A stretch of 64,000 nucleotides of DNA from an uncultured Brachyspira sp. (GTDB lineage Bacteria > Spirochaetota > Brachyspiria > Brachyspirales > Brachyspiraceae): assembly GCF_944388875.1 (NCBI RefSeq), contig NZ_CALXKQ010000009.1:1-64000 (forward strand), read 5' to 3'. Within the stretch, counting starts at the first letter, position 1; each line of letters opens with the position of its first letter. The notes beneath the pieces are model-generated. The model saw only the letters and a list, made by a program, of their open reading frames with translations, had not been told where the DNA came from and did no database searches. Of the stretch, positions 20,871-32,809 are shown one piece after another. A program made the translations under genes and the position numbers.

Positions 20871-20911
20871 AAAATAATGCATGAACTAATTTTTAAATCA
20901 TGCATTATTTT
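20871..20911. terminator. bidirectional terminator folD / radical SAM gene
   Basis: A 14-bp perfect stem, AAAATAATGCATGA (20871-20884) with its complement at 20898-20911, around a 13-base loop. The A- and T-rich stem bases serve as U-tracts in both directions. It overlaps the last codons of the convergent radical SAM gene and would end that long minus-strand transcript. Confidence 0.82.
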
Positions 20912-21471
20912 AATATATCAAAAAAATCATCAGGATATCCATACATATCGATTCTGCCGTTTTCATCAATTTCTATTTCTACATAAGTGCCGTTTACTAT
21001 ATCTTCTTTTTTGTATCTGTCAGTTAAAAACTCAATTAGCTGATTATCCGAACCGTAAAGATGATTATTAATATTTCTTTTTTCTTCTATATATCTTCCT
21101 GATATTAATATGTCGGCATAAGAGAGTACTGAATTTTTACTGCTGCTTAAAATCTCATCCTTTTCATATCCTGTATAAAGTATTATGCCAATATTAAGAC
21201 TTTTGATATTTTTCATTAATTGTATAGTTTCTTCAAGCTGATCTAAAGGCTCTCCTCCAAGTATAGTAACATTATTAATATCATATTTTATTACAGAATC
21301 TTTTATTTGGGAAATTATATTTTCTATACTAATTTCTTCTCCGCCTTCAAAACTATGCATAGAATAATTCCAGCATCCTTTGCATCTCAATTTACAGCCT
21401 TGAGTCCATATAACAAAACTATTCCCAAAGCCGTAAATCTTTGAATGCTTTTTAATATGAGCTATACGCAT
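20905..21471 (-). CDS. 4Fe-4S single-cluster radical SAM protein (NrdG-like)
   Basis: A 188-residue radical SAM protein of the activating-enzyme class. CKLRCKGC carries the three cluster cysteines, followed by LGGEPLDQ. It resembles NrdG and pyruvate-formate-lyase activases, but no anaerobic ribonucleotide reductase lies nearby. It is the last gene of the large AAA+/paralog cluster, 4 bases after the DUF1257-like gene. Association of such a protein with DUF1257 and DUF2997 genes suggests it acts in that system. The substrate is unknown. Confidence 0.82.
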   Translation of the reverse strand: MRIAHIKKHSKIYGFGNSFVIWTQGCKLRCKGCWNYSMHSFEGGEEISIENIISQIKDSVIKYDINNVTILGGEPLDQLEETIQLMKNIKSLNIGIILYTGYEKDEILSSSKNSVLSYADILISGRYIEEKRNINNHLYGSDNQLIEFLTDRYKKEDIVNGTYVEIEIDENGRIDMYGYPDDFFDILK

Positions 21472-21475
21472 AAAT

Positions 21476-21886
21476 CTATCTTGCTTCTCTCACCAAAGTA
21501 AGCTGTATCTTATTATCCTTTTTCACTTCCATTACTTTATATCCTTTAGCCTTTGCCTTTTCCATAATGGCTTTTTTCTGAGATTCTATAAACTCAAGTC
21601 TTTCTCTCTCAAGTCTTTCTCTCTCTTCTTCAAGCTTTCTTTCATAAACTTTATTATATTCCGCTTCCAATTTTTGAAGAAATGAAGATATTTCGCTGTT
21701 ATAACTGTCATAGCTTAATACATATTTTCCATTAACTAATTTAAAATATGTATTTCTAAATCTATGCAGAGATGGAATATAAATTTTATCATTCTTTAAT
21801 TCATACTGATATCCGCAATTTTTAAGTGCCTCTAAAAGTATTTCCTCATTAATAAAAGGTGTAGTAGTTTTTACTAAACAGCTCAT
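21476..21886 (-). CDS. DUF1257 (Ycf35-like) family protein
   Basis: A 136-residue protein. The start MSCLVKTTTPFINEEILLEAL and the strand-rich region after it match the DUF1257 family, known in plastids and cyanobacteria as Ycf35. The middle (residues ~75-115) is a charged coiled coil rich in Glu and Arg. The C-terminus ends with a short beta hairpin. Function is unknown. It overlaps the DUF2997-like gene by four bases (ATGA-type coupling). Confidence 0.72.
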   Translation of the reverse strand: MSCLVKTTTPFINEEILLEALKNCGYQYELKNDKIYIPSLHRFRNTYFKLVNGKYVLSYDSYNSEISSFLQKLEAEYNKVYERKLEEERERLERERLEFIESQKKAIMEKAKAKGYKVMEVKKDNKIQLTLVREAR

Positions 21887-22089
21887 TGAATACCTCCTTT
21901 TTGTATTTTTTGCTGCTGAGTATTAATCTTCTGATTATACTCATCTGTTTTTTTAATGTCTTTTATATTAGAAATTTCATCAAGCAAAGCATTAACCTCA
22001 TCCAAACAAGCCTCGCCCTTTATACCGTCAGTTTTAACATTGAGGCTTCCGTCCTCATTTATTGTTATTGTAATTCTTTCTTCTCTCAT
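21883..22089 (-). CDS. DUF2997-like small protein
   Basis: A 68-residue protein. MREERITITINEDGSLNVKTDG followed by GEACLDEVNALLDEI fits the DUF2997 pattern: a beta hairpin, then a helix preceded by a conserved Cys-containing turn. The last ~20 residues are Gln/Lys-rich. Such proteins are commonly encoded beside DUF1257, as here. Molecular function is unknown. It starts 3 bases after the upstream paralog stops. Confidence 0.68.
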   Translation of the reverse strand: MREERITITINEDGSLNVKTDGIKGEACLDEVNALLDEISNIKDIKKTDEYNQKINTQQQKIQKGGIQ

Positions 22090-22092
22090 AAA

Positions 22093-23268
22093 TTATACTC
22101 CTTTATTTTTTAATATATTTAAATATTCTTTTATATTTGCAAATGGAATTAACTGAGACAGCATTAAAAAGTCATTATCATGTTTATATAAATTTTCTAA
22201 TGTATTTAATAGATAATTACTATTAAATATTATTATTATTTCTATTATTCTAATAAAATATTTTTTTAATAATTTAGTATTTTCAGTTTCAAAGGCTTTT
22301 ACAACATCCGCTAATAAGGCTCTATTCAATCTAAACATTTCTCTAAATAATCCTACAGCAAGAGGTCCGTGAAATCCTACAGCAAGAGGTCTATTTATGG
22401 TTAAACCTGTTAAATAATTTATTATATTTGATAAACTATATTCGGTATCTTCGCCATATATGTCAATGAATACATAATTATTTGTTTTTATCTCTTTCTC
22501 TAAATAATACTTTTTATCATCATCAAAAATAGACAAAAATGCTTCTTCATTTATATTAAAAAGATATCTTAATATTTTTATATCTATGCAAGAGTTAAGC
22601 TCTTGATTATTTTCAAATATTTCAAAAAAATACAATCTTTTTTTATTTGGTATATTTTTAAGCATATAAAATGATTTTAATTCATTTTCATTAATATTAC
22701 TAATATTATTTTTAATTGATGAAAAATCATCTTTATTTATATGAATGCATTTAAAAACTTCATCAAATTCAAAATCTATTTCTTTTTTATTTAAAATTAT
22801 TTTAAATATTTCCAATGTATCATAAGATATTAATGTATATAATATTCTATTAAAGTTATTATCCTCTGAATAATTTATATCATCTTTATTTAGAATATTT
22901 TTAATATGCGAATTAAAAAATAATCCTTTTTCATAAACTCCAATTTCTTTAATATGATAATTGTAAATATAATCGGTATTTTTACACTTATACTTTGATG
23001 ATAGTATTTTTAATAATGCCTCTCTTTTATCATCATCTAAAATAAATAAAATATTAAGAAATGAATTTTTTATTTTTAAATCTTCTATAGAATTATAAAT
23101 ATTATTAAAATACTCTTTTTGAGAATCTGAAATGCTTTCATTAACTATTTTTTTACCTACATTAAGAAGCAGATTTTCTCTGTCTTCTTTATTAAGTCCA
23201 TTTAAAAATACTTCTCTTTCATTTTCAGGAAGTTTATAATACATATTTTCGAATAAAGATAAAGACAT
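22093..23268 (-). CDS. cluster paralog 8, helical-repeat protein lacking the C-terminal module
   Basis: A 391-residue member of the tandem family. The N-terminus MSLSLFENMYYKLPENERE matches its three upstream neighbours, as do the recurring 'IxPxxKRxxFFExFENN' helices. It lacks the shared C-terminal KKxNKSSLAYIMD module and ends in an unrelated Ile/Asn-rich helical region. Near residue 295 there is a small tandem duplication, PLAVGFHGPLAVGL, also visible as a direct DNA repeat at about 22358-22395. AAGGAG precedes the start. Function unknown. Confidence 0.85.
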   Translation of the reverse strand: MSLSLFENMYYKLPENEREVFLNGLNKEDRENLLLNVGKKIVNESISDSQKEYFNNIYNSIEDLKIKNSFLNILFILDDDKREALLKILSSKYKCKNTDYIYNYHIKEIGVYEKGLFFNSHIKNILNKDDINYSEDNNFNRILYTLISYDTLEIFKIILNKKEIDFEFDEVFKCIHINKDDFSSIKNNISNINENELKSFYMLKNIPNKKRLYFFEIFENNQELNSCIDIKILRYLFNINEEAFLSIFDDDKKYYLEKEIKTNNYVFIDIYGEDTEYSLSNIINYLTGLTINRPLAVGFHGPLAVGLFREMFRLNRALLADVVKAFETENTKLLKKYFIRIIEIIIIFNSNYLLNTLENLYKHDNDFLMLSQLIPFANIKEYLNILKNKGV

Positions 23269-23269
23269 A

Positions 23270-24769
23270 TTAATTCTCCTTAATATGATCTATAAGTTTT
23301 ATATTATCATTATCTTCCATAATATAATTTATAGAAGACTGATTATTCCTTTTATAGTACACAGTTTTATACAGGTTATTAATATAATCTATAATCTTAT
23401 TAAATTTTTTAATATCTTTAATTCCTGAATCTAAAATATTTTCTATATCATCGCATGATTTTTGATACTGCTTTTTATTATTATCATCTAAGTCTTTTAT
23501 AAGCCATGATATTTCTGTTAATTTAGCTTTGCATTTGCTTAGATATTTTATTAGTATTTGATTGTCTAAATCTGATGAATAAGCATTAAATAAACTTAAA
23601 TAATTATTCATTTGATATATATTTACATATTTTGATAATGAAATAAAATCTTTTATATTTTCTATATTATTAATATATTTAAGGGAATCCAAAACATTAT
23701 TAATTTCAAGCTTCATAATAATATCTAATATTCTATTAAGAACAAAACGCTCGATATTTTCCAATTGATTGTATAAAGCAGCAATAATAGAAATAATCTG
23801 TCCTCCGAAAAGAACAAGCATGCGAAGTCCTTGAGAGCCGTTTGTTAAAAACTCTCTGATTTCAGAATTCATGCCGCTTTTATTAAGAAAAAAAGTTTCT
23901 ATATCTTTTGCATCTTTAAGAAATATCAAATTATTATTTCCGCTGCTCCATAAAGTATTAACTATGCTTGTATTATTAGGAAATATAAAGCCTATACCGC
24001 TTTCTGTATTAATCCAAGCAAAACTGGTACCGCTTTTATTATTTAAATCTATTTTTTGATTATCCATATTATTTCTGAATATTTCTAAAAAAGCCTCTTT
24101 ATTTGTATTAAGCATATTCCTAAGAATTTTTATAAATGCAACGTCCCTAAGTTCATCCGTATTTTCAAATTGATTAAAAAAGTATTCTTTTTTGTCTTCA
24201 GGTATATTAAAAAGAACTTCTAAAAATTTTGAATTAAGCTCTCTTGTATCATAATAATTATCAAAGTTATAATCATATTTTCCAAAAAAATCATTAGCTT
24301 GAGAACTTATATTAATATATCCGAATGAGTTTAAAATTTCTATAACTTTTGATGATATTGCAATATATATAATTCTGTAAAACTCAGATTCATTTCCTTT
24401 AATGTTTTCTATAATAGAATCGATATCATTTTTTCTGTTTGGAACTATATTTTTTATATTATCTTTGGACATGCTATAGGAGTAATTTATTTTGCAGTCA
24501 TTTATAGTTTCAAATATTTGTAAAAAATCATTTCTTTTTGATTTGATTATGCTGTTAAATACGGTCAAAAAAGAGTTTTTATCATTATCAGGTATGCTGC
24601 TGAATATATTTTTAAAATATTCTTTTTTATTATCATCAACATTTAATAAAGCATTATCTCTATTTATTACAAATAATAATTTTTCTTTTTCATTTCTAGG
24701 CAGACTCTTAAAAAAAATCTCTCTTTCATTTTCAGGAAGACTGTAATAAATATCCTCATAAAATGCCAT
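23270..24769 (-). CDS. cluster paralog 7, helical repeats plus C-terminal module
   Basis: A 499-residue protein. Residues 1-100 carry the family N-terminus (MAFYEDIYYSLPENERE). Residues ~190-250 have the LFNIPEDKKEYFFNQFEN and LRNMLNTNKEAFLEIFRN helices. The last ~85 residues are the shared module with both invariant cysteines (LSKCKAKL and KSCDDIE), but the terminal motif is diverged, KRNNQSSINYIME. A region around 235-300 is not shared with the neighbours. No signal peptide; predicted cytosolic. Function unknown. Confidence 0.85.
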   Translation of the reverse strand: MAFYEDIYYSLPENEREIFFKSLPRNEKEKLLFVINRDNALLNVDDNKKEYFKNIFSSIPDNDKNSFLTVFNSIIKSKRNDFLQIFETINDCKINYSYSMSKDNIKNIVPNRKNDIDSIIENIKGNESEFYRIIYIAISSKVIEILNSFGYINISSQANDFFGKYDYNFDNYYDTRELNSKFLEVLFNIPEDKKEYFFNQFENTDELRDVAFIKILRNMLNTNKEAFLEIFRNNMDNQKIDLNNKSGTSFAWINTESGIGFIFPNNTSIVNTLWSSGNNNLIFLKDAKDIETFFLNKSGMNSEIREFLTNGSQGLRMLVLFGGQIISIIAALYNQLENIERFVLNRILDIIMKLEINNVLDSLKYINNIENIKDFISLSKYVNIYQMNNYLSLFNAYSSDLDNQILIKYLSKCKAKLTEISWLIKDLDDNNKKQYQKSCDDIENILDSGIKDIKKFNKIIDYINNLYKTVYYKRNNQSSINYIMEDNDNIKLIDHIKEN

Positions 24770-24781
24770 ATTAAAAACTCC

Positions 24782-26182
24782 TTAATTAATGTACTCTATA
24801 TATTTAATATTTTCGTCTTCATCATCCATTATATAAGCCAAAGAAGATTTATTATGCTTTTTATAATAGGCATTTTTGTATATATTATTGATATGCTCTA
24901 TAATTTTATTAAACTTTTCTTTGTTTTCAATTCCTCTGTCAAGTACAGAGTCAATTTCTTTACATGACTTTTTATAATCTTCTTTAATTGCATGCTCAAA
25001 ATCTTCTATAAGCCATGATATTTCTGTTAATTTTGCTTTACATTTACTTAAATATTCTATATAGATATCATTATCTATACTTGTAGCATTATTATTATAA
25101 GTAAACTCGTTATCATTAATTTGTGTTTCTTTTGCATTTTTTTCTGATTTATTTGAAACATTTGAGAATAAATTTATATAATCTTCTAATTTTTCTAATA
25201 CAACAATTGATGAAAAATGATTTACACTTTCCTGCATATTTTCATCTAAACTCTCAAATATATCAATAAGCTTTTTAGTTTGAAAATTAACAATACTCTC
25301 AAAGATTCTTAAGAAAAAGAAAGATTCTATTTTAGACTGAAAACATTTATATATATCAATAATCCTACTATAATTATAAGAATCTTCCAAATAATCTAAT
25401 ATAGTTTTTTTTTCATCTGTAGTAGAAAGAGAAGTTCCCCATCTCCATGCTCCAGCATAACTAATATCCCTAACATTATTTATATCTGCTTCTTTTACAT
25501 TTTTAAATATATATAAAAATAAATCTCTATCCATATTTAATACTACTCTAAACATTTTGATAAACTCTGAATCTTTAAACTCTGAATTCTTTTCAAATTC
25601 TTCAAAGAAATATATTATTTTTTCTTCAGGAAATTTATAAAGCATATTAAGAAGTTTTTCATTATTATTTTTATAATAGTTATATTTACTTTCAAGTGAA
25701 TAAATATTCAGAAGTGAATTATTAAAATAGTTATATGATATTTGAGAAATTACTGATACAACTTCTATAATTTTTATATCAATAATAAATTGCAATATTC
25801 TTCTAAATTTTCTTAAATTCAAAAATTTATTTAATTTTTCTTTATACTGATCAAATATATCTGCTATAATAGTTAGGTTGTTATACTCTTCTGAAATTCT
25901 TTTATCATTAATATTATTAGAAACAATATCTAATAATATTTCTCTTTTATCTTCATCTAAATAATTAAAAATATCAATAAATGATTTCTTTGTTTTTTCA
26001 TCTTTCAATTCTTTATAAATACTTTCGAATCTTTCTTTTTGATTATTGGATACATTTGAATAAAGATCATTTTTTTTCAAAGAAAGCATTAATGATTGTC
26101 TGTCTTCTTCTGACAAACTATTTATAAAAGTTTCCCGCTCATTTTCTGGGAGGCTGTAATACATATCCTCATAAAAAGCCAT
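24782..26182 (-). CDS. cluster paralog 6, helical repeats plus C-terminal module
   Basis: A 466-residue protein with the same architecture as its neighbours: N-terminal MAFYEDMYYSLPENERETF, repeated helices such as YKFPEEKIIYFFEEFEKN and NMDRDLFLYIFKN, and the C-terminal module with CKAKLTEI, KSCKEID and KKHNKSSLAYIMD. The repeated 'LPEExRxxFFxxL' pattern recalls alpha-helical repeat scaffolds, a structural impression only. The gap to paralog 7 is 12 bases and AGGAG precedes the start. Confidence 0.85.
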   Translation of the reverse strand: MAFYEDMYYSLPENERETFINSLSEEDRQSLMLSLKKNDLYSNVSNNQKERFESIYKELKDEKTKKSFIDIFNYLDEDKREILLDIVSNNINDKRISEEYNNLTIIADIFDQYKEKLNKFLNLRKFRRILQFIIDIKIIEVVSVISQISYNYFNNSLLNIYSLESKYNYYKNNNEKLLNMLYKFPEEKIIYFFEEFEKNSEFKDSEFIKMFRVVLNMDRDLFLYIFKNVKEADINNVRDISYAGAWRWGTSLSTTDEKKTILDYLEDSYNYSRIIDIYKCFQSKIESFFFLRIFESIVNFQTKKLIDIFESLDENMQESVNHFSSIVVLEKLEDYINLFSNVSNKSEKNAKETQINDNEFTYNNNATSIDNDIYIEYLSKCKAKLTEISWLIEDFEHAIKEDYKKSCKEIDSVLDRGIENKEKFNKIIEHINNIYKNAYYKKHNKSSLAYIMDDEDENIKYIEYIN

Positions 26183-26244
26183 ATTAAAAAACTCCTAAAC
26201 AATATTGAATATTATATATTATATGCCTTTATAATTCAAATCTT

Positions 26245-27558
26245 TTATATTTCTATCTTCTCCATAAGCTCAATCTCATCATCTATATCCATTATAAGCA
26301 ATAGAGTAGATTTATTATACTTCTTATAATAAGCCGTTCTGTAAAGCTGATTTATATCATCTATTATTTCATTTAACTTATATTTATCGCTTATGCCGAA
26401 GTCCAAAATATTTTCTATTTCCAAACAGGCATTATTATAATATTCTTTTACAGCATACTCAAAATCTTCAGAAAAATATATTATATCTTTAATTTTTTCT
26501 TTGCATTTTGATATATATTTGTAGTCTATATAATTACTATTGACAATCTCTATTTCTTCTTCTTTGCTTTCCTCTGTATAACTGAATATATTTAAATAGT
26601 TTTCTATATTTTCAAATGTTATATAATATGAAAGAAGCAGAAAATTTTCTCTTATATCTTCTCCAAGGCTGTCAAAAACCTCTAATAATTCTTTAACCTT
26701 AAACTTCAAAACAGATTCTAAAACTCTGAAAAATACTTTGCATTCTATCTCTGATTTTAATATCTCATAAAAACTATTTATAGAACTGTAATAATCAAAA
26801 TATATATTTCTGCAAACCTGAGAAGAGTAAATGTTATATGATTTATGTATGTATGATTCCTTATTTATATCCTCAAAAATATCTAAAAAAAGTTCCTCAT
26901 CCATATCAAGTATTACTTCAAGCATCTTAATAAACTCATTATTTTTAATGTGATCATTATTTTTAAACTCTTCAAAGAAAAATATTCTTCTCTCTCTAGG
27001 TATATTAAAAAGTATATTCAATAATTTCTCAGAACTTTTGCCTTTATATTTATGCTTGTATGAATTCATTTTTATATAAGAATTATTTACTAAACTGTAT
27101 TCATAATTATATAATTCTTTTAATATCTCAGACATCTTTATATCTATAATAACTTTTAAAAGTCTTTTAAATAAAGTGTCATCAGAAAATCTTAAAAGTT
27201 TATTCATGTCTATTTTTTCATAATCCTTACATATATTTTTTAAATCATTAAAGTCATTAAAAAAATATAAAGCATCCGTATTTATATTATTAAAAAGCAT
27301 CTCCAATAATAAATATCTTTTCTCTTCATTTAAATTATTAAATATATATAAAAAAGCATCCTTATCTTTTTCTTTCATCATTCTTTCGTATATATTAGTA
27401 AATTTTTCTCGCTGTTTATCTGATGCATTTTTTAAATATAAATTATTTCTTTTAATAGTTCCAAGCAGTTCGTTTTTTTCTTCTTCGGATAAGCTATTAA
27501 TAAATATTTCTCTATCGCTCTCTTCTAAATTATAATAAATATCGTCATAAAAAGACAT
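26245..27558 (-). CDS. cluster paralog 5, helical repeats plus C-terminal module
   Basis: A 437-residue protein. I chose ATG 27558 so that it begins MSFYDDIYYNLEESDRE like the other paralogs; the frame from 27591 adds 11 unconserved residues. Helical repeats run to about residue 330 (LFNIPRERRIFFFEEFKN, LDMDEELFLDIFED). The module follows with CKEKIKDI, NACLEIE and KKYNKSTLLLIMD. Function unknown. Confidence 0.84.
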   Translation of the reverse strand: MSFYDDIYYNLEESDREIFINSLSEEEKNELLGTIKRNNLYLKNASDKQREKFTNIYERMMKEKDKDAFLYIFNNLNEEKRYLLLEMLFNNINTDALYFFNDFNDLKNICKDYEKIDMNKLLRFSDDTLFKRLLKVIIDIKMSEILKELYNYEYSLVNNSYIKMNSYKHKYKGKSSEKLLNILFNIPRERRIFFFEEFKNNDHIKNNEFIKMLEVILDMDEELFLDIFEDINKESYIHKSYNIYSSQVCRNIYFDYYSSINSFYEILKSEIECKVFFRVLESVLKFKVKELLEVFDSLGEDIRENFLLLSYYITFENIENYLNIFSYTEESKEEEIEIVNSNYIDYKYISKCKEKIKDIIYFSEDFEYAVKEYYNNACLEIENILDFGISDKYKLNEIIDDINQLYRTAYYKKYNKSTLLLIMDIDDEIELMEKIEI

Positions 27559-27655
27559 AATTCTCTCATCCCCCTTAACAACTATGTCCAATATAAATTA
27601 AAATTATAAACAATATTTAAATAATTTCTATATTAATAATAAATATTTTTTAATA

Positions 27656-28312
27656 TTAATTTTCAACAAACTCATTAACATTTATAGTTTCTATAAAATT
27701 AATATCTTCATCATTATCCATTATAAAAGCAAGAGATGACTTATTATTTTTTTTATAATAAGCACTTCTGTATAAATTATTAATATAGTCTATAACATTA
27801 TTAAATCTATCAACAAAATCATTAATGCTCTTTGTACCTTTCATAGTATTAAAATCTTCTTCCAAACTTCTTTGCAAATCTAAACAAGAATCTTCATAGC
27901 TTTTTCTTGAGGCATAATCAAAATCTTTTATAAGATTTTTTACTTCCTCTATCTTTAATCTGCATTCATTTGCTGAAGAGTTTATTTTTATTTTAAACTT
28001 TTCTATATTTATTTTTATAGTTTCTTTTTTGTTTTCATCATTTTTATCTTCTCTATTTTTTGATTCATTATTTTCTTTATTGCCGTATACAGAATTACTA
28101 TTGCTATTTTCACCGAACATTATATCATAAGTTATATCATCTATATCATCTGCTATACTGTTTAAATTATCTGCTACCGTATTGGCAAGCTCTTCAATAT
28201 TGTCAATAAAATCCATAAAGTTATAATATGTATTTCTATTGGAATTACTGAAGTTTTTGAACTTATCCTTTAATTCATTAACTTTTTTATCAAAAGAAGT
28301 ATTATTGCTCAT
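27656..28312 (-). CDS. cluster paralog 4, short protein with C-terminal module
   Basis: A 218-residue protein in which the helical-repeat N-terminus is replaced by an amphipathic region (ELANTVADNLNSIADDIDD) and a hydrophilic Asn/Glu/Lys linker. The C-terminal module has CRLKIEEV, DSCLDLQ and KKNNKSSLAFIMD, with a ~10-residue insertion in the middle. GGAGG precedes the start, and the start overlaps the paralog 3 gene by 11 bases. Function unknown. Confidence 0.85.
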   Translation of the reverse strand: MSNNTSFDKKVNELKDKFKNFSNSNRNTYYNFMDFIDNIEELANTVADNLNSIADDIDDITYDIMFGENSNSNSVYGNKENNESKNREDKNDENKKETIKINIEKFKIKINSSANECRLKIEEVKNLIKDFDYASRKSYEDSCLDLQRSLEEDFNTMKGTKSINDFVDRFNNVIDYINNLYRSAYYKKNNKSSLAFIMDNDEDINFIETINVNEFVEN

Positions 28313-28847
28313 TAATATCCTCCAGTTTTATTAAATCAAGCTCATTATCATCATCCATTATAAAAGCAAGAGATGATTTGTTATGCTTTTTATAATAAGC
28401 ACTTCTGTATAAATTATTTATGTATTCTATAGTTTTATTTAAATCATCATAAGTCTTTATATATTCTAAACTCTTTTCCAAATCTATACAAGAATCTTCA
28501 TAACTTTTTCTTGAAGAATAATCGAAGTTTTCTATTAATTCTTTTATCTCTTTAATTTTATCTTTGCATTTATTAATAATATTGATGCTTATATCTTTTT
28601 TAAGCTCTTTGCTGTCGGCAATGATTTCTTTTTCTGCTTTTTTGTCTTTTGACATAGTATGACTGTTTATTTCTTTAACAGCCGCTGCATTACTATTTTT
28701 TGATGATGTTCTTTTTATTCTAGCATTGTTTTTATTATTTTTTCTATTTTCTGCCTTCTCTATTTTTTCATTTAAAAACTGCAAAGTGTCTTCAAATTTC
28801 TCATCAAAACCATCAACAGCATCTGCAATAATTTCAAAAATACTCAT
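28302..28847 (-). CDS. cluster paralog 3, short protein with C-terminal module
   Basis: A 181-residue protein. Residues 1-40 are an amphipathic helix (IFEIIADAVDGFDEKFEDTL), then a basic Lys/Asn/Ala/Ser linker, then the module: CKDKIKEI, DSCIDLE, KKHNKSSLAFIMD. Its module is closest to that of paralog 4, including the FDYxSRKSYEDSC stretch, suggesting a pairwise duplication. Function unknown. Confidence 0.85.
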   Translation of the reverse strand: MSIFEIIADAVDGFDEKFEDTLQFLNEKIEKAENRKNNKNNARIKRTSSKNSNAAAVKEINSHTMSKDKKAEKEIIADSKELKKDISINIINKCKDKIKEIKELIENFDYSSRKSYEDSCIDLEKSLEYIKTYDDLNKTIEYINNLYRSAYYKKHNKSSLAFIMDDDNELDLIKLEDINEQ

Positions 28848-28936
28848 AAAAATACCTCAATATATTTAATTTATAGTATTATTATAATAAATATTTATGA
28901 CAAAAAATGACGCTGTTTTTAATTTTTTATAAAAAA

Positions 28937-29623
28937 TTAAATATTCTCAATCAAATCAATATCGTCTTCTTCTACATCCATTATATAAGCGAGAGAAGAT
29001 TTATTATGCTTTTTATTATAAGCATTTCTGTATAAATTATTAATCTCATCTATAATTTTATTAAGTTCATATTTATTGTCAATACCGTTATTTAATCTTT
29101 TTTCTATATCATCGCATTCTTTATGATAATCATTTTTTATCATATATTCAAAGTCTTTAGAAAGTTCTTTTATTTCTTTTAATTTATCCATGCATTTCTG
29201 ATTTATGCTGTTTATTTTTTCTTTTATATTTGAAGCCTCTGAATATAGTTTATTAGTTTCATCAACTATATCATTTAACTTATTTAAAGCCTTTTTTATA
29301 TCTTTTGATAAATTAGCTTTAGCATTTTTTAACTGTTTTTCTATTTCTTTTTCTAATGCATTGCATTCTTCTATTAAAGCATTATCATTCAAGCAATTTT
29401 TTAGGGATAATACTTTTTCCTTGCAGTTATTTAATGTGTCTTTAAATATTTCTATATGCTGAGATATATCTTCTTTTACTAATTTTGATTTGGATTTATT
29501 TTTAGTGGAAACTTTAGAATTAGCTGATGCCTTCTTTTTAACTGATTTTTTTATAATTTTTATTTTAGTTGATTTTTTTACTGATGCAGTTTTTTTAGAT
29601 GACGGTTTCTTTTTAGATGCCAT
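28937..29623 (-). CDS. cluster paralog 2, histone-H1-like basic tail plus C-terminal module
   Basis: A 228-residue protein. The first ~50 residues are almost only Lys, Ser, Ala and Thr (MASKKKPSSKKTASVKKS and on), as in bacterial H1-like DNA-binding tails. A coiled-coil segment with its own CKEKV start follows (~60-125), possibly a degenerate extra module copy. The standard module completes it: CMDKLKEI, KECDDIE, KKHNKSSLAYIMD. Binding to DNA or RNA is inferred from charge only. The 3' ~250 bases are nearly identical to those of paralog 1. Confidence 0.85.
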   Translation of the reverse strand: MASKKKPSSKKTASVKKSTKIKIIKKSVKKKASANSKVSTKNKSKSKLVKEDISQHIEIFKDTLNNCKEKVLSLKNCLNDNALIEECNALEKEIEKQLKNAKANLSKDIKKALNKLNDIVDETNKLYSEASNIKEKINSINQKCMDKLKEIKELSKDFEYMIKNDYHKECDDIEKRLNNGIDNKYELNKIIDEINNLYRNAYNKKHNKSSLAYIMDVEEDDIDLIENI

Positions 29624-29647
29624 AGTTTTTTAATCTCCATTTTTTAA

Positions 29648-30262
29648 TTAAATATTCTCAATCAAATCAATATCGTCTTCTTCTACATCCATTACATAAG
29701 AGAGAGATGATTTATTATGTTTTTTATTATAAGCATTTCTGTATAAATTATTAATCTCATCTATAATTTTATTAAGTTCATTTTTATTGTCAATACCGTT
29801 ATTTAATCTTTTTTCTATATCATCGCAGTCTTTATGATAATCATTTTTAATAGCATATTCAAAATCTTTAGAAAGTTCTTTTATTTCGTTTAATTTATCC
29901 TTACATTTTTTTATACAGTTTTTTATTTCTTTATCATTATTTATTCCCTCTTCAAAAGTACCATCAATATCTCCAAAAATATCTGAAAATAGTTTATCTT
30001 TTTTCAAGTCTGGAAATTCTTTTAATATATCTTTAAAAAATTCTTTTGAATTTTTATCATCTAACTGTATATTTTCTTTACTGGTTTTAGTATATGTTTT
30101 TGCTGACTTTATTTTATCTAAAATATTCTTATTATTTTTCAGCTTTGGAAATTGCTCTAATAAATCATTTATAAGTTCTTCTTTCATATTTTTATCATCT
30201 AATTCTTCATCTTTAAATATATTTTCCAACATACTTTTATTATTAAAATCTAAACTATACAT
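29648..30262 (-). CDS. cluster paralog 1, C-terminal module protein, probably 5'-frameshifted
   Basis: A 204-residue open frame. Residues 10-100 contain two similar acidic helical stretches (LLEQFPKLKNN and ILKEFPDLKKD). The module is almost identical to that of paralog 2 (KKHNKSSLSYVMD). The ATG at 30262 has no good ribosome site, and the same frame stays open upstream with family-like residues (see 30263-30438). The true product is therefore either longer through a one-base shift or a truncated remnant. Confidence 0.72.
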   Translation of the reverse strand: MYSLDFNNKSMLENIFKDEELDDKNMKEELINDLLEQFPKLKNNKNILDKIKSAKTYTKTSKENIQLDDKNSKEFFKDILKEFPDLKKDKLFSDIFGDIDGTFEEGINNDKEIKNCIKKCKDKLNEIKELSKDFEYAIKNDYHKDCDDIEKRLNNGIDNKNELNKIIDEINNLYRNAYNKKHNKSSLSYVMDVEEDDIDLIENI

Positions 30263-30438
30263 TTCAAAAGCTTCTTTTATATTATTAAAAAACTTTTCTT
30301 TTTGAGATTCTGATAAATCTGAAAATTGATTTAAAAATTTTTTCTTTTCATTTTCTGAAGATGATATTTTTTAAATTCATCCTCAGTCATAGTAGTTTCT
30401 ACACCAAAATTTTTTATATTTAAAATCTTCTTAATCAT
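30263..30438 (-). pseudogene. frameshifted 5' part of cluster paralog 1
   Basis: Reading upstream in the paralog 1 frame gives SSSENEKKKFLNQFSDLSES and QKEKFFNNIKEAFE, the family N-terminal pattern (compare PENERETFINSL and NQKERF). That frame loses its start at an A6 run (minus strand 30372-30367). The preceding frame supplies ATG 30438 or ATG 30390 and MTEDEFKK. One extra A would join both parts. It may be a real mutation, a slippery site or a sequencing error. Confidence 0.6.
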
Positions 30439-30628
30439 CTATGTAATTTAAATTTGTATATAGATCTTCTTCAATGATTTTATTATATTTTTTATTTTCT
30501 TTGATATTTAGCTCCTGATTATAAAAATTTGTATTAATTCTTTATACTTTTATAAAAATTGTATTAATGAAAAAGTAAAAAACTATTCATTAATACAATT
30601 TATAATAAATACATTTAAATTTATTAAT
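30439..30628. other. intergenic gap with possible gene remnant
   Basis: No intact gene is present. The minus strand at about 30540-30439 is open and reads NQELNIKENKKYNKIIEE then ends NYIDD and stop, with no start codon found. This is possibly the 3' end of a lost paralog. A direct repeat of ATTAATACAA(A)TTTTTATAA flanks 30525-30600, and a hairpin is listed separately. Confidence 0.4.
30557..30600 (-). terminator. hairpin after the 198-aa gene
   Basis: A 14-bp perfect stem, AATTGTATTAATGA (30557-30570) with its complement (30587-30600), and a 16-base loop. On the minus strand it is followed by TTTTTATA. It lies 29 bases after the 198-aa gene stop, so it could separate the AAA+/198-aa pair from the paralogs or let only part of the transcription through. 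Confidence 0.55.
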
Positions 30629-31225
30629 CTAATTATTTTTATACTCTTTAAATATGTATTTAACAAAATATTTTACAGCGTTCTCATAACTTTTAATATT
30701 TATTTGATTATCTTTTTTTACTTCAAGAATTGGAGGAAAGTACTTATTAGGATCTGGCTCTTCATTTTCTATTCCGCTTATACTTTCTATAATATCATCA
30801 GTATCTACTGAATAATCTTCAGGAAAATCATAAATATCTATCATGTTTTTATCTTTGTTAGTAAGCATCTTTTGTACATTGAATCCTTTTGGTATGCCTG
30901 CCATTTTTTTCTTATCCAAAACTATTTCTCTTTTAATAAGTTCTTCCTCATTTACAGCTTTATTTTCTAAAAGGAAGTTTACTATATTATTTACACAATC
31001 TCCCATAGGGTTAACGCCTAAAGCACTGTTGTCTGGATTATCAATAATTATATTAAATTTATCCTTTTTCTTAATCAATGTGAATTTCAAATTTTCATTA
31101 TCAAAATCTGATTTATTTAAATCATAATTTCTCGTAGTTTTGAACCCAAATTTTCTAAGAGCTTTAATAAAAATATCTTCATTAATATCGCTGTCAATTA
31201 AAACTACTGTTATTTTATCTTTCAT
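30629..31225 (-). CDS. hypothetical protein encoded next to the AAA+ ATPase
   Basis: A 198-residue protein I do not recognise. It begins with a beta-alpha-beta-like segment (KITVVLIDSDINEDIFIKALRKFGF) recalling DUF1257-type starts, has a central VNPMGDCVNNIVNFLLENKAV helix, and a Pro/Asp-rich C-terminal half (EPDPNKYFPPILEV). GGAGG precedes the start, 30 bases after the AAA+ gene. Tight linkage suggests it works with the ATPase. No catalytic motif is visible. Confidence 0.75.
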   Translation of the reverse strand: MKDKITVVLIDSDINEDIFIKALRKFGFKTTRNYDLNKSDFDNENLKFTLIKKKDKFNIIIDNPDNSALGVNPMGDCVNNIVNFLLENKAVNEEELIKREIVLDKKKMAGIPKGFNVQKMLTNKDKNMIDIYDFPEDYSVDTDDIIESISGIENEEPDPNKYFPPILEVKKDNQINIKSYENAVKYFVKYIFKEYKNN

Positions 31226-31255
31226 AGTGATTTTCCTCCAATCTTTTTATTTATA

Positions 31256-32809
31256 TTACTGTATAAAAGGATTATACTGTTCTTGTTTTAATTGAGGAAC
31301 AGGCTTATCTTTTGAGGCTGAATCTTCTTCCCAAGCATTAGATGAAGCTAGTACTGCCCTTGCTTTTGCCCATCTTCTCATATCGCTTATATTTTCTTTC
31401 ATAGTTTTTGATATAGGGTAGGTTCTTTTCATGGCTTCTATTATATGCTCAGTTGTTACTTCCTTATCCTCATCAAATGCCCTGAACAATGCCTCTTTTA
31501 TAGCTTCTTCTATTTCAGCACCTGAGAATAACTCACATTCATCTGCAATTTTAGAAATATCAAAATTTTCGCTTTTTCTTTTGTATTTTCCTAAATGTAT
31601 TTTTATTATCTCTTCTCTGTCTGGCTTTAAAGGCAAATCAACAAAAAATATTTCATCAACACGTCCCTTTCTTAAAAGCTCTGGAGGAAGACCAGATATA
31701 TTATTTGCAGTGGCAACAACGAATACTGGTTTTTTCTTCTCCTGCATCCAAGTTAAAAATGTTCCAAGCACTCTTGAAGTAGTGCCTCCGTCAGTAGCTC
31801 CTGATGACTGCATACCTGAAAGCCCTTTTTCTATCTCATCTATCCAAAGTACTGAAGGAGAAACAGCTTCTGCTATTTTTAATGCTTTTCTAATATTGCC
31901 CTCAGATTCTCCTACTATACCAGCAAATATTTTACCCATATCTAATTTAATAATAGGAAACTGCCAAGCTGCACCTACCGCCTTAGCACATAAGCTTTTT
32001 CCTGTTCCCGGTATACCCAATAATAATATTCCTCTAGGTGTTTCAAGTCCGTAATCTTTAGCTCCCTGCTCAAATGCTCTTCCTCTTCTTCTAAGCCAAT
32101 TCTTTAATATATCAAGTCCGCCTATATCATCCAATGTTTCATTATGATGATAATATTCCAAATGACCGCTGTTTTTAATAATTGTTTCTTTCTCTGATAT
32201 TATTATTGGTATCTCTTCCTCTGTTAATTTTCCTGCCTGTACTATTGCTTTAGAAAATGCTCTTTTAGCTTCCATTATAGTTAACCCTAATGCAGAATCA
32301 ACAAGTTTTTCTTTATTTCCGCTTGGGGTTACATCATATTGCTTGCATGTATGCTCAAACATTACTGTCAAATCGCTTCTATCTGGCAAATCTTCCTCTA
32401 CAATATAAACATCCTTCTCTAATTCAAGAGGCAGGCATCTTTTTGTTTGTAAAAGTATTAAAGTTCTGTCGCTGTAATTACTGTATCCAATATCTCTCAT
32501 TTTGCTTATTAATCTTGGATTATCTTTTAAAAATAAATCATAGTCCTGAAGCATTAGTACAGAATCCTTTGCCTCATCGCTTTGATACCAATCCAAAATA
32601 AATAATGCATCGTCCTTGTCTTCTATTGAAGTAGATGTTTTTCCGTTATTTGACATCTTTTTAAGCCCTGAGGTAATGCTCCATTTATACCATGTTCTTT
32701 TTAATTCTGCAGCTGTTCTTGAAACTTCCCCTTCTATTCTCATAGTTTCATAGCTTATAACCTGCACAATATTTATAGATGAACGTATTAATATGCTTAA
32801 ATTTATCAT
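31256..32809 (-). CDS. Ycf46-like AAA+ ATPase
   Basis: A 517-residue protein. Residues ~1-215 form the Ycf46-type N-terminal half (ALFILDWYQ, RTLILLQTKRCLPLE). The conserved DDIGGLDILKNWLRRR linker leads into the AAA+ core: Walker A GIPGTGKS, Walker B SVLWIDEIEKG, sensor 1 VATANNI, arginine finger in LLRKGRVDE, sensor 2 SGAEIEEAIKEA. Ycf46 proteins are known from plastid genomes and cyanobacteria and have no settled function. It is the first gene of the cluster, with GGGGG before the start. It probably forms a hexamer that remodels a partner encoded downstream. Confidence 0.88.
   Translation of the reverse strand: MINLSILIRSSINIVQVISYETMRIEGEVSRTAAELKRTWYKWSITSGLKKMSNNGKTSTSIEDKDDALFILDWYQSDEAKDSVLMLQDYDLFLKDNPRLISKMRDIGYSNYSDRTLILLQTKRCLPLELEKDVYIVEEDLPDRSDLTVMFEHTCKQYDVTPSGNKEKLVDSALGLTIMEAKRAFSKAIVQAGKLTEEEIPIIISEKETIIKNSGHLEYYHHNETLDDIGGLDILKNWLRRRGRAFEQGAKDYGLETPRGILLLGIPGTGKSLCAKAVGAAWQFPIIKLDMGKIFAGIVGESEGNIRKALKIAEAVSPSVLWIDEIEKGLSGMQSSGATDGGTTSRVLGTFLTWMQEKKKPVFVVATANNISGLPPELLRKGRVDEIFFVDLPLKPDREEIIKIHLGKYKRKSENFDISKIADECELFSGAEIEEAIKEALFRAFDEDKEVTTEHIIEAMKRTYPISKTMKENISDMRRWAKARAVLASSNAWEEDSASKDKPVPQLKQEQYNPFIQ

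What the first reader, a model, noticed from the sequence alone, without database searches (positions are those of the whole stretch)
20905..32809. AAA+-centred 12-kb cluster with eight tandem paralogs: candidate undescribed system
Seen: one minus-strand train of a Ycf46-like AAA+ ATPase, an unknown 198-aa protein, eight related proteins of 181-499 residues, DUF2997-like and DUF1257-like proteins and a small radical SAM protein, mostly with gaps under 100 bases or overlaps. Seven paralogs share one C-terminal module with very different N-termini. Inferred: the shared module is a docking or processing tag for the AAA+ or radical SAM protein, and the variable N-termini are effectors or scaffolds. 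This resembles the build of polymorphic conflict or assembly systems, but I know of no described system with these parts.
Basis: partly seen in the sequence, partly recalled or inferred. Interest (0 to 1): 0.93.

Follow-up and report, generated by a model that had tools for sequence, protein, structure and literature searches.

The report
AAA+/radical-SAM operon with swapped cargo
A gut spirochaete carries a gene cluster in which a conserved ATPase/radical-SAM core, shared with many bacteria and archaea, has traded its usual helicase partners for a fast-changing set of mix-and-match proteins with one common tail; this suggests a modular cell machine that has no description in the sources searched.

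Summary
Thirteen minus-strand genes (32809 to 20905) form one train: AAA+, a 198-aa protein, eight paralogs (p8-p1), DUF2997, a DUF1257-like protein and a NrdG-like radical SAM protein. Seven paralogs (p2-p8) share an ~86-aa C-terminal module; p1-p4 also share one long helical N-terminus.

The AAA+/DUF2997/DUF1257-like/rSAM quartet is not unique. It recurs as a chassis in bacteria and archaea, usually bracketing an SF1 helicase and two unknown proteins, sometimes in defence islands. In the AAA+ tree Brachyspira nests among the helicase systems (99/97 with Helicobacter), so its cargo was replaced. The AAA+ ends in a conserved QE..NPFI tail. In Brachyspira the system is all-or-none (7 of 26 genomes) at a variable folD/VIT1-like locus. 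Array genes diverge faster than the core. The 3' module is 87-92% identical in DNA beneath unrelated 5' halves, direct evidence of shuffling. One relative replaces most of the array with a dynamin GTPase set.

Best model: an AAA+ remodelling chassis driving exchangeable sensor/effector subunits docked through a common tail, probably in biological conflict. The chassis and shuffling are shown. Docking, the rSAM reaction and the biological role are inferred.

The parts
31256..32809 (-). AAA+ ATPase, 517 aa, classical AAA with AAA_lid_3; chassis gene 1
   Evidence: Pfam AAA 3.9e-29, AAA_lid_3 3.1e-8; Walker A, Walker B (LWIDE) and arginine-finger columns invariant in 11 homologues
31259..31297 (-). 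Conserved AAA+ C-terminal tail P-x-L-x-QE-x(2-4)-NPFI
   Evidence: Same tail in the AAA+ of 24 genome-collection loci (23 outside Brachyspira), absent from 53 others
30629..31225 (-). u198: Brachyspira 'U' family protein; relatives of its N-terminal domain occur fused to the C-terminal module in two other genomes
   Evidence: No Pfam hit; BLASTP to G016 fused protein N-term E 7e-4; G016 fused to G031 299-aa N-term E 3e-4
30558..30599 (-). A/T-rich perfect inverted repeat followed by T-run between u198 and p8, possible attenuator
   Evidence: RNA fold of the enclosing 101 nt -21.8 kcal/mol, z -4.6 vs shuffles; pattern found only at this locus among loci fetched
29648..30262 (-). p8, array protein 204 aa; module 29651-29914
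   Evidence: BLASTP with p2-p7
28937..29623 (-). p7, array protein 228 aa, Lys-rich N-term; module 28940-29197
   Evidence: Last 288 nt 92% identical to p8, no similarity upstream
28302..28847 (-). p6, array protein 181 aa; module 28329-28577
   Evidence: orthologues in G002 and G016
27656..28312 (-). p5, array protein 218 aa; module 27683-27967
   Evidence: orthologues in G002, G016, G018
26245..27558 (-). p4, array protein 437 aa; shared helical N-terminus; module 26254-26514
   Evidence: start codon by ribosome-binding site
24782..26182 (-). p3, array protein 466 aa; shared helical N-terminus; module 24788-25045 predicted as a helical bundle
   Evidence: AlphaFold2 mean pLDDT 75, all helical, module helices 371-391, 397-415, 421-442
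23270..24769 (-). p2, array protein 499 aa; shared helical N-terminus; module 23282-23536
22093..23268 (-). p1, array protein 391 aa with the shared N-terminus but no module
21883..22089 (-). DUF2997 protein, 68 aa; invariant G22, G25, C28 across 18 homologues; chassis gene 2
   Evidence: Pfam PF11211 7.9e-8 over cut-off; alignment
21476..21886 (-). DUF1257/Ycf35-like protein, 136 aa; N-terminal alpha/beta part, long helix, C-terminal beta hairpin; chassis gene 3
   Evidence: 95.6% to G002, 41-42% to Treponema and Bacteroidales proteins in the same slot; AlphaFold2 pLDDT 84.5
20905..21471 (-). NrdG-like minimal radical SAM protein, 188 aa; chassis gene 4
   Evidence: Fer4_12 2.4e-31, Radical_SAM 2e-11; CxxxCxxC and GGE kept in all 39 homologues

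Best explanation
A modular AAA+ remodelling system. A conserved chassis (AAA+ ATPase with a QE..NPFI tail, DUF2997, a DUF1257-like adaptor and a NrdG-like radical SAM enzyme) was inherited from helicase-bearing relatives. In Brachyspira its cargo was replaced by an array of exchangeable subunits. Seven of the eight carry a common C-terminal three-helix module, proposed as a dock/assembly tag, beneath a variable N-terminus that senses or acts. Proposed cycle: the array proteins assemble through the common module; the AAA+ ring, positioned by its tail and the DUF1257-like adaptor, assembles or disassembles that complex; the radical SAM enzyme acts on the DUF2997 GxxGxxC motif or a partner as an arming step. 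The likely role is biological conflict (phage or mobile-element defence, or similar). Shown: gene set, chassis conservation, cargo replacement, tail motif, module shuffling, all-or-none presence. Inferred: docking, the rSAM target, assembly/disassembly, the conflict role.
For: Chassis: of 24 genome-collection loci with an NPFI-type AAA+ (one of them Brachyspira), 21 have the rSAM, 17 DUF2997 and 12 the DUF1257-like gene in the stretch read. A 416-kb control from Spirochaetota found them only at the operon's own copies, apart from two marginal hits at E 3e-4 and 9e-4. Cargo replacement: AAA+ tree, Brachyspira with Helicobacter 99/97, inside an 11-row clade (100/99) of helicase systems; no M3 homologue in 26 Brachyspira genomes. 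Shuffling: p7/p8 92% identical over the last 288 nt and p8/G016 fused gene 87% over 300 nt with unrelated upstream halves. Fast array: p5/p6 49-76%, p3 57%, u198 28% against core 78-96% and flanks 93-95% for G002, G016 and G018. Patchy and all-or-none: AAA+ and rSAM in the same 7 of 26 genomes. Variable folD/VIT1-like site. Helicase relatives lie near LmuB, MkoC and type II REase-like genes, and plasmids carry the chassis. The G031 array includes a dynamin GTPase (PF00350 1.2e-20) and a second shared C-terminal tail.
Against: No nuclease, toxin or other effector domain was found in any array protein. The p3 model has no PDB match at E<0.001. No direct evidence links the module to the AAA+ or rSAM. 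Variable presence and fast evolution also fit surface, stress or structural genes. The conflict role leans on relatives that carry different cargo.
Confidence: 0.45

Rival explanations
1. A maturation or repair machine: the AAA+ and adaptors act as a chaperone/activase for an enzyme or metallocentre, and the rSAM makes a radical or a peptide modification, perhaps on DUF2997. The array proteins are clients or scaffolds and the system is metabolic, not a conflict system.
For: Small DUF2997 with invariant GxxGxxC; NrdG-like rSAM with intact motifs; in cyanobacteria DUF2997 and DUF1257/ycf35 are clustered with ferredoxin Fed7 (PMC4284462); Treponema L050 has the four chassis genes with no cargo between them.
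Against: No glycyl-radical enzyme, other oxidoreductase, peptidase or transporter among the 13 genes; patchy presence and fast-shuffled array.
Confidence: 0.2
2. A membrane- or structure-building system: the AAA+ acts like a Vps4-type remodeller on helical, coiled-coil and membrane-active proteins, building or dismantling an intracellular structure or repairing membranes.
For: G031 has a dynamin-family GTPase plus amphipathic and Gly/Ala-rich proteins in the same train; a second Brachyspira AAA+ cluster has Gly/Ala-rich proteins and its own paralog array; AAA+ resembles CDC48 at profile level; the p3 module's top structural row is bacterial dynamin LeoA, Z 6.4, not significant for a helical bundle.
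Against: No dynamin or obvious membrane protein in the window's own operon; no ESCRT-III, MIT or PspA domain.
Confidence: 0.2
3. Lineage-specific paralog expansion parked inside a conserved operon: the array is a neutral or decaying gene family and the four chassis genes work alone.
For: L050 lacks cargo; G016 has a split p3-like gene and a rearranged operon; array GC is low, 0.19-0.25.
Against: All eight window paralogs are open, most with good ribosome-binding sites; p5 orthologues persist in three other genomes and p6 orthologues in two; the module is not found outside chassis-bearing genomes.
Confidence: 0.1

Closest known systems
DUF2997-DUF1257(ycf35)-fed7 cluster of cyanobacteria, and separately Ycf46 AAA+
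   Same: DUF2997 and DUF1257 neighbours; AAA+ of the same broad family
   Different: Cyanobacterial cluster pairs them with a ferredoxin and lists no AAA+ or array (PMC4284462); no function found for it either
Unnamed helicase-bearing clusters (AAA+, SF1 helicase, M2, M3, DUF2997, DUF1257-like, rSAM), e.g. Methanococcoides alaskense L045, Bacillus tianshenii L044
   Same: Same four chassis genes, same order and bracketing, same AAA+ tail, nearest AAA+ relatives in the tree
   Different: Cargo is a helicase plus two unknown proteins instead of the shuffled array; I found no published name for them
MoxR-vWA ternary conflict systems (Kaur et al. 2020, PMC7159879)
   Same: AAA+ chaperone core with variable linked partners
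   Different: AAA+ is classical, not MoxR; no vWA; no named effector domain
ESCRT/Cdv-Vps4 remodelling
   Same: Classical AAA+ acting, by hypothesis, on helical partners
   Different: No MIT domain and no ESCRT-III domain found
NrdG anaerobic RNR activase
   Same: rSAM family and length, best NCBIfam hit
   Different: 102.6 bits, under the 126.1 cut-off; no NrdD in the operon; the genome has a second NrdG-like gene elsewhere

Membership tests
MoxR-vWA ternary conflict systems | MoxR-type AAA+ paired with a vWA co-chaperone | tested here: not met
   Pfam finds classical AAA with AAA_lid_3 and no vWA in any of the 13 proteins
ESCRT/Cdv-Vps4 | MIT domain on the AAA+ and an ESCRT-III (Snf7) partner | tested here: not met
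   No MIT or Snf7 hit by Pfam; structural kinship of the array not resolved
NrdG activase | Score over the TIGR02491 cut-off with NrdD partner | tested here: not met
   102.6 bits vs 126.1; no NrdD in the operon
DUF2997 | Pfam PF11211 over gathering score | tested here: met
   32.5 vs 24.1 bits
DUF1257 (Ycf35) | Pfam PF06868 over gathering score | tested here: not met
   No match in the own genome; homology only through iterative profile
Radical SAM superfamily | Pfam Radical_SAM over cut-off and CxxxCxxC motif | tested here: met
   44.8 vs 29.5 bits; CKLRCKGC
Ietas defence system (IetA/IetS) | IetA ATPase with an IetS protease partner | tested here: inconclusive
   AAA core matches IetA at 73 bits in PADLOC; NCBIfam IteA 62 bits vs 510 cut-off; no IetS hit among the four window proteins given to PADLOC
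Mokosh | MkoA helicase with its partner nuclease | tested here: not met
   Relatives' helicase hits MkoA; the window operon has no helicase
Polymorphic toxin systems | Conserved N-terminal delivery part, variable C-terminal toxin domain, linked immunity gene | tested here: not met
   Orientation is reversed (conserved C-terminus) and no toxin domain was found
Works like an AAA+-driven remodeller of a modular complex | Physical contact of AAA+ or adaptor with the shared module | not testable with these tools

The most novel reading that the evidence does not exclude
The AAA+/DUF1257-like/DUF2997/radical-SAM quartet is a general plug-in chassis, shared by bacteria and archaea, that drives interchangeable outputs: SF1 helicase cargo, dynamin membrane cargo, or a shuffled array of helical sensor/effector proteins that recombine beneath a constant docking module. 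It would be a previously unrecognised class of prokaryotic immune or conflict machinery.
Probability: 0.3. Interest if true: 0.9.

Novelty: categorically new. Interest (0 to 1): 0.72.

Why it matters
DUF1257 (Ycf35), DUF2997 and Ycf46-type AAA+ proteins occur from plastids to archaea and no function for them was found in the sources searched. This operon links them to a radical SAM enzyme, shows that the four genes behave as one inherited unit whose cargo can be swapped, and gives a tractable system in which to ask what the chassis does. The shuffled array, with a conserved C-terminal module under unrelated N-termini and DNA-level breakpoints, is an uncommon arrangement and would be a useful example of modular evolution if the module proves to be a docking tag. 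An AAA+ tail motif conserved from archaea to spirochaetes is a ready experimental handle.

Tried and rejected
Profile comparison of the C-terminal module, the shared N-terminus and u198 against the helicase-cargo proteins (M2, M3), the Clostridia cargo and DUF1257: no relation detected. The Clostridia 258-aa cargo does look DUF1257-like (hhalign probability 52.7, E 2e-5), and its 615-aa partner is an M3 homologue (98.9), so those loci are helicase-less variants of the same scheme. Viral contigs and plasmids gave no module homologue. The one module hit outside Brachyspira (G159, E 3.5e-4) lies in a 544-aa protein of an unrelated, CRISPR-like neighbourhood and is taken as chance. PDB sequence and fold searches with DUF2997, DUF1257-like and p3 gave nothing significant. 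The LeoA match of the p3 module (VIA Z 6.4) is within what unrelated helical bundles reach and is not used. Papers naming DUF2997, DUF1257 or Ycf46 in the held library, as far as listed and read, give no function.
Full report
OBSERVATION. Thirteen genes run on the minus strand from 32809 to 20905. Eleven of twelve junctions are under 100 bp or overlapping and one is 366 bp. Pfam supports a classical AAA+ with AAA_lid_3, DUF2997 and a radical SAM protein with the minimal 4Fe-4S domain. The DUF1257 assignment is indirect: no Pfam hit, but an iterative profile joins it to proteins in the same slot elsewhere, one of which scores DUF1257 at 1.3e-19. Self-comparison shows two sharing patterns: p1-p4 share about 340 N-terminal residues, and p2-p8 share an 86-residue C-terminal module.

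THE CHASSIS IS WIDESPREAD. A scan of public genomes with the AAA+ returned the best 80 loci in bacteria and archaea. Labelling their genes with profiles built here shows a recurrent set: AAA+ first, then a cargo, then DUF2997, DUF1257-like and rSAM. In Methanococcoides, Planctomycetota, Bacteroidales, Bacillus tianshenii, Helicobacter and others the cargo is an SF1 helicase of the UPF1/IGHMBP2 type followed by two proteins without families (M2, M3). In a Treponema contig the four genes are adjacent with no cargo. In Clostridia the cargo is an M3 homologue and a DUF1257-like protein. Annotated plasmids of Paenibacillus, Paenarthrobacter and Geminocystis independently carry AAA+ with DUF1257-like and DUF2997, the first two with the rSAM too. 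All 39 rSAM homologues keep CxxxCxxC and GGE. All 18 aligned DUF2997 proteins keep two glycines and one cysteine, GxxGxxC. A control of 416 kb from Spirochaetota found these genes only at copies of this operon, apart from two marginal hits at E 3e-4 and 9e-4.

AN AAA+ TAIL MOTIF. The AAA+ of 24 of the genome-collection loci (23 outside Brachyspira) ends in P-x-L-x-QE-x(2-4)-NPFI or a near variant. The window protein ends PQLKQEQYNPFIQ. The Ycf35-type relatives in Bacillaceae, Omnitrophota and Asgard archaea lack it. I read this as a docking motif; that is inference.

CARGO REPLACEMENT. A maximum-likelihood tree of 81 AAA+ proteins places the Brachyspira proteins (100/99) as sister to a Helicobacter helicase system (99/97), inside an 11-row clade (100/99) whose other non-Brachyspira members are helicase systems or the cargo-less Treponema locus. 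No M3 homologue was found in 26 Brachyspira genomes. The simplest history is that the chassis kept its four genes and order while its middle was exchanged.

THE ARRAY IS SHUFFLED. The module was found in 6 of 393 Spirochaetota genomes, all Brachyspira, plus one chance-level hit. p7 and p8 are 92% identical over their last 288 nt and share nothing detectable upstream; p8 and a G016 gene are 87% identical over 300 nt, again with unrelated 5' parts. The G016 gene carries a domain related to u198 in front of the module, and G031 has a similar fusion. Array genes diverge fastest: p5/p6 49-76%, p3 57% and u198 28%, against 78-96% for the chassis and 93-95% for flanking genes in G002, G016 and G018. 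Array length varies: eight in the window, two in G002 and at least three plus a u198-domain fusion in G016.

A STRIKING RELATIVE. In G031 the same chassis follows a dynamin-family GTPase (PF00350, 1.2e-20), zinc-ribbon proteins, proteins with amphipathic or Gly/Ala-rich N-termini, and several u198-type proteins. Four of these share a second, different C-terminal tail. The pattern of a constant tail under changing N-termini therefore appears twice on this chassis, with two unrelated tails.

LOCUS. AAA+ and rSAM occur together in the same 7 of 26 Brachyspira genomes, and DUF2997 in 6 of these; in G037 the AAA+ and rSAM lie on two short contigs. The window copy sits between folD and a VIT1-like gene. 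That interval differs from genome to genome and in G003 and G032 holds a second, different AAA+ cluster.

MECHANISM. The best-supported model is an AAA+ remodelling chassis that handles interchangeable subunits. The array proteins would assemble or dock through the common module, predicted by AlphaFold2 as a helical bundle. The AAA+, with intact Walker A, Walker B and arginine-finger positions, would assemble or dismantle the complex. The rSAM would act on the DUF2997 GxxGxxC motif or a partner. A conflict role is suggested by patchiness, rapid change, plasmid carriage and the neighbours of helicase relatives (LmuB at 5e-67, MkoC, REase-like). None of docking, the reaction or the role has been shown. 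The maturation and membrane/structure rivals remain open.

NOVELTY. Pfam, NCBIfam, PADLOC and the held paper library do not describe a system with these parts. Most subscription papers are not in that library, so the helicase-bearing class may have been noted elsewhere; this lowers certainty, not the observation.

Noticed in passing
window 30263-30628: The 366-bp gap between u198 and p8 holds a strong A/T-rich hairpin and, just upstream of p8 and in its frame, a short stretch resembling the shared p1-p4 N-terminus (tblastn E 0.05), perhaps the remnant of a lost paralog.
   Followed up: partly
L038 10061-13831 (own genome, contig 4) and L172, L176, L223: A second kind of AAA+ cluster in Brachyspira, without rSAM or DUF2997, with a Gly/Ala-rich protein and its own paralog family; the AAA+ gene is broken in G032 and only a fragment remains in G033. 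In G003 and G032 it sits in the same folD/VIT1-like interval.
   Followed up: partly
L169 and L170 (G016): The operon is split: the rSAM end and the AAA+ end lie about 26 kb apart with unrelated genes between them, and the p3-like gene is broken in two.
   Followed up: partly
L205 (Treponema succinifaciens plasmid pTRESU01): An AAA+ of this family with a 4Fe-4S (rSAM-like) gene lies inside a contractile-injection gene cluster (VgrG/baseplate).
   Followed up: no
L063 and L073 (Asgard archaea): DUF1257 and the AAA+ are followed in L063 by proteins that look like Mre11 and Rad50 from their sequence, and in L073 by a protein of the same length as the Mre11-like one.
   Followed up: no
L218 (mycobacteriophage Firecracker), L219 (Agrobacterium phage JP1): Phages carry distant AAA+ relatives (30-37% identity) without DUF2997, DUF1257 or rSAM neighbours in the stretch read.
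   Followed up: partly
L034 13281-14756 (G002): The AAA+ has an in-frame stop that removes the NPFI tail while the rest of the operon looks intact.
   Followed up: no
own genome contigs 3, 18 and 27: Several clusters of multiple dynamin-family GTPases, unlinked to this operon.
   Followed up: no
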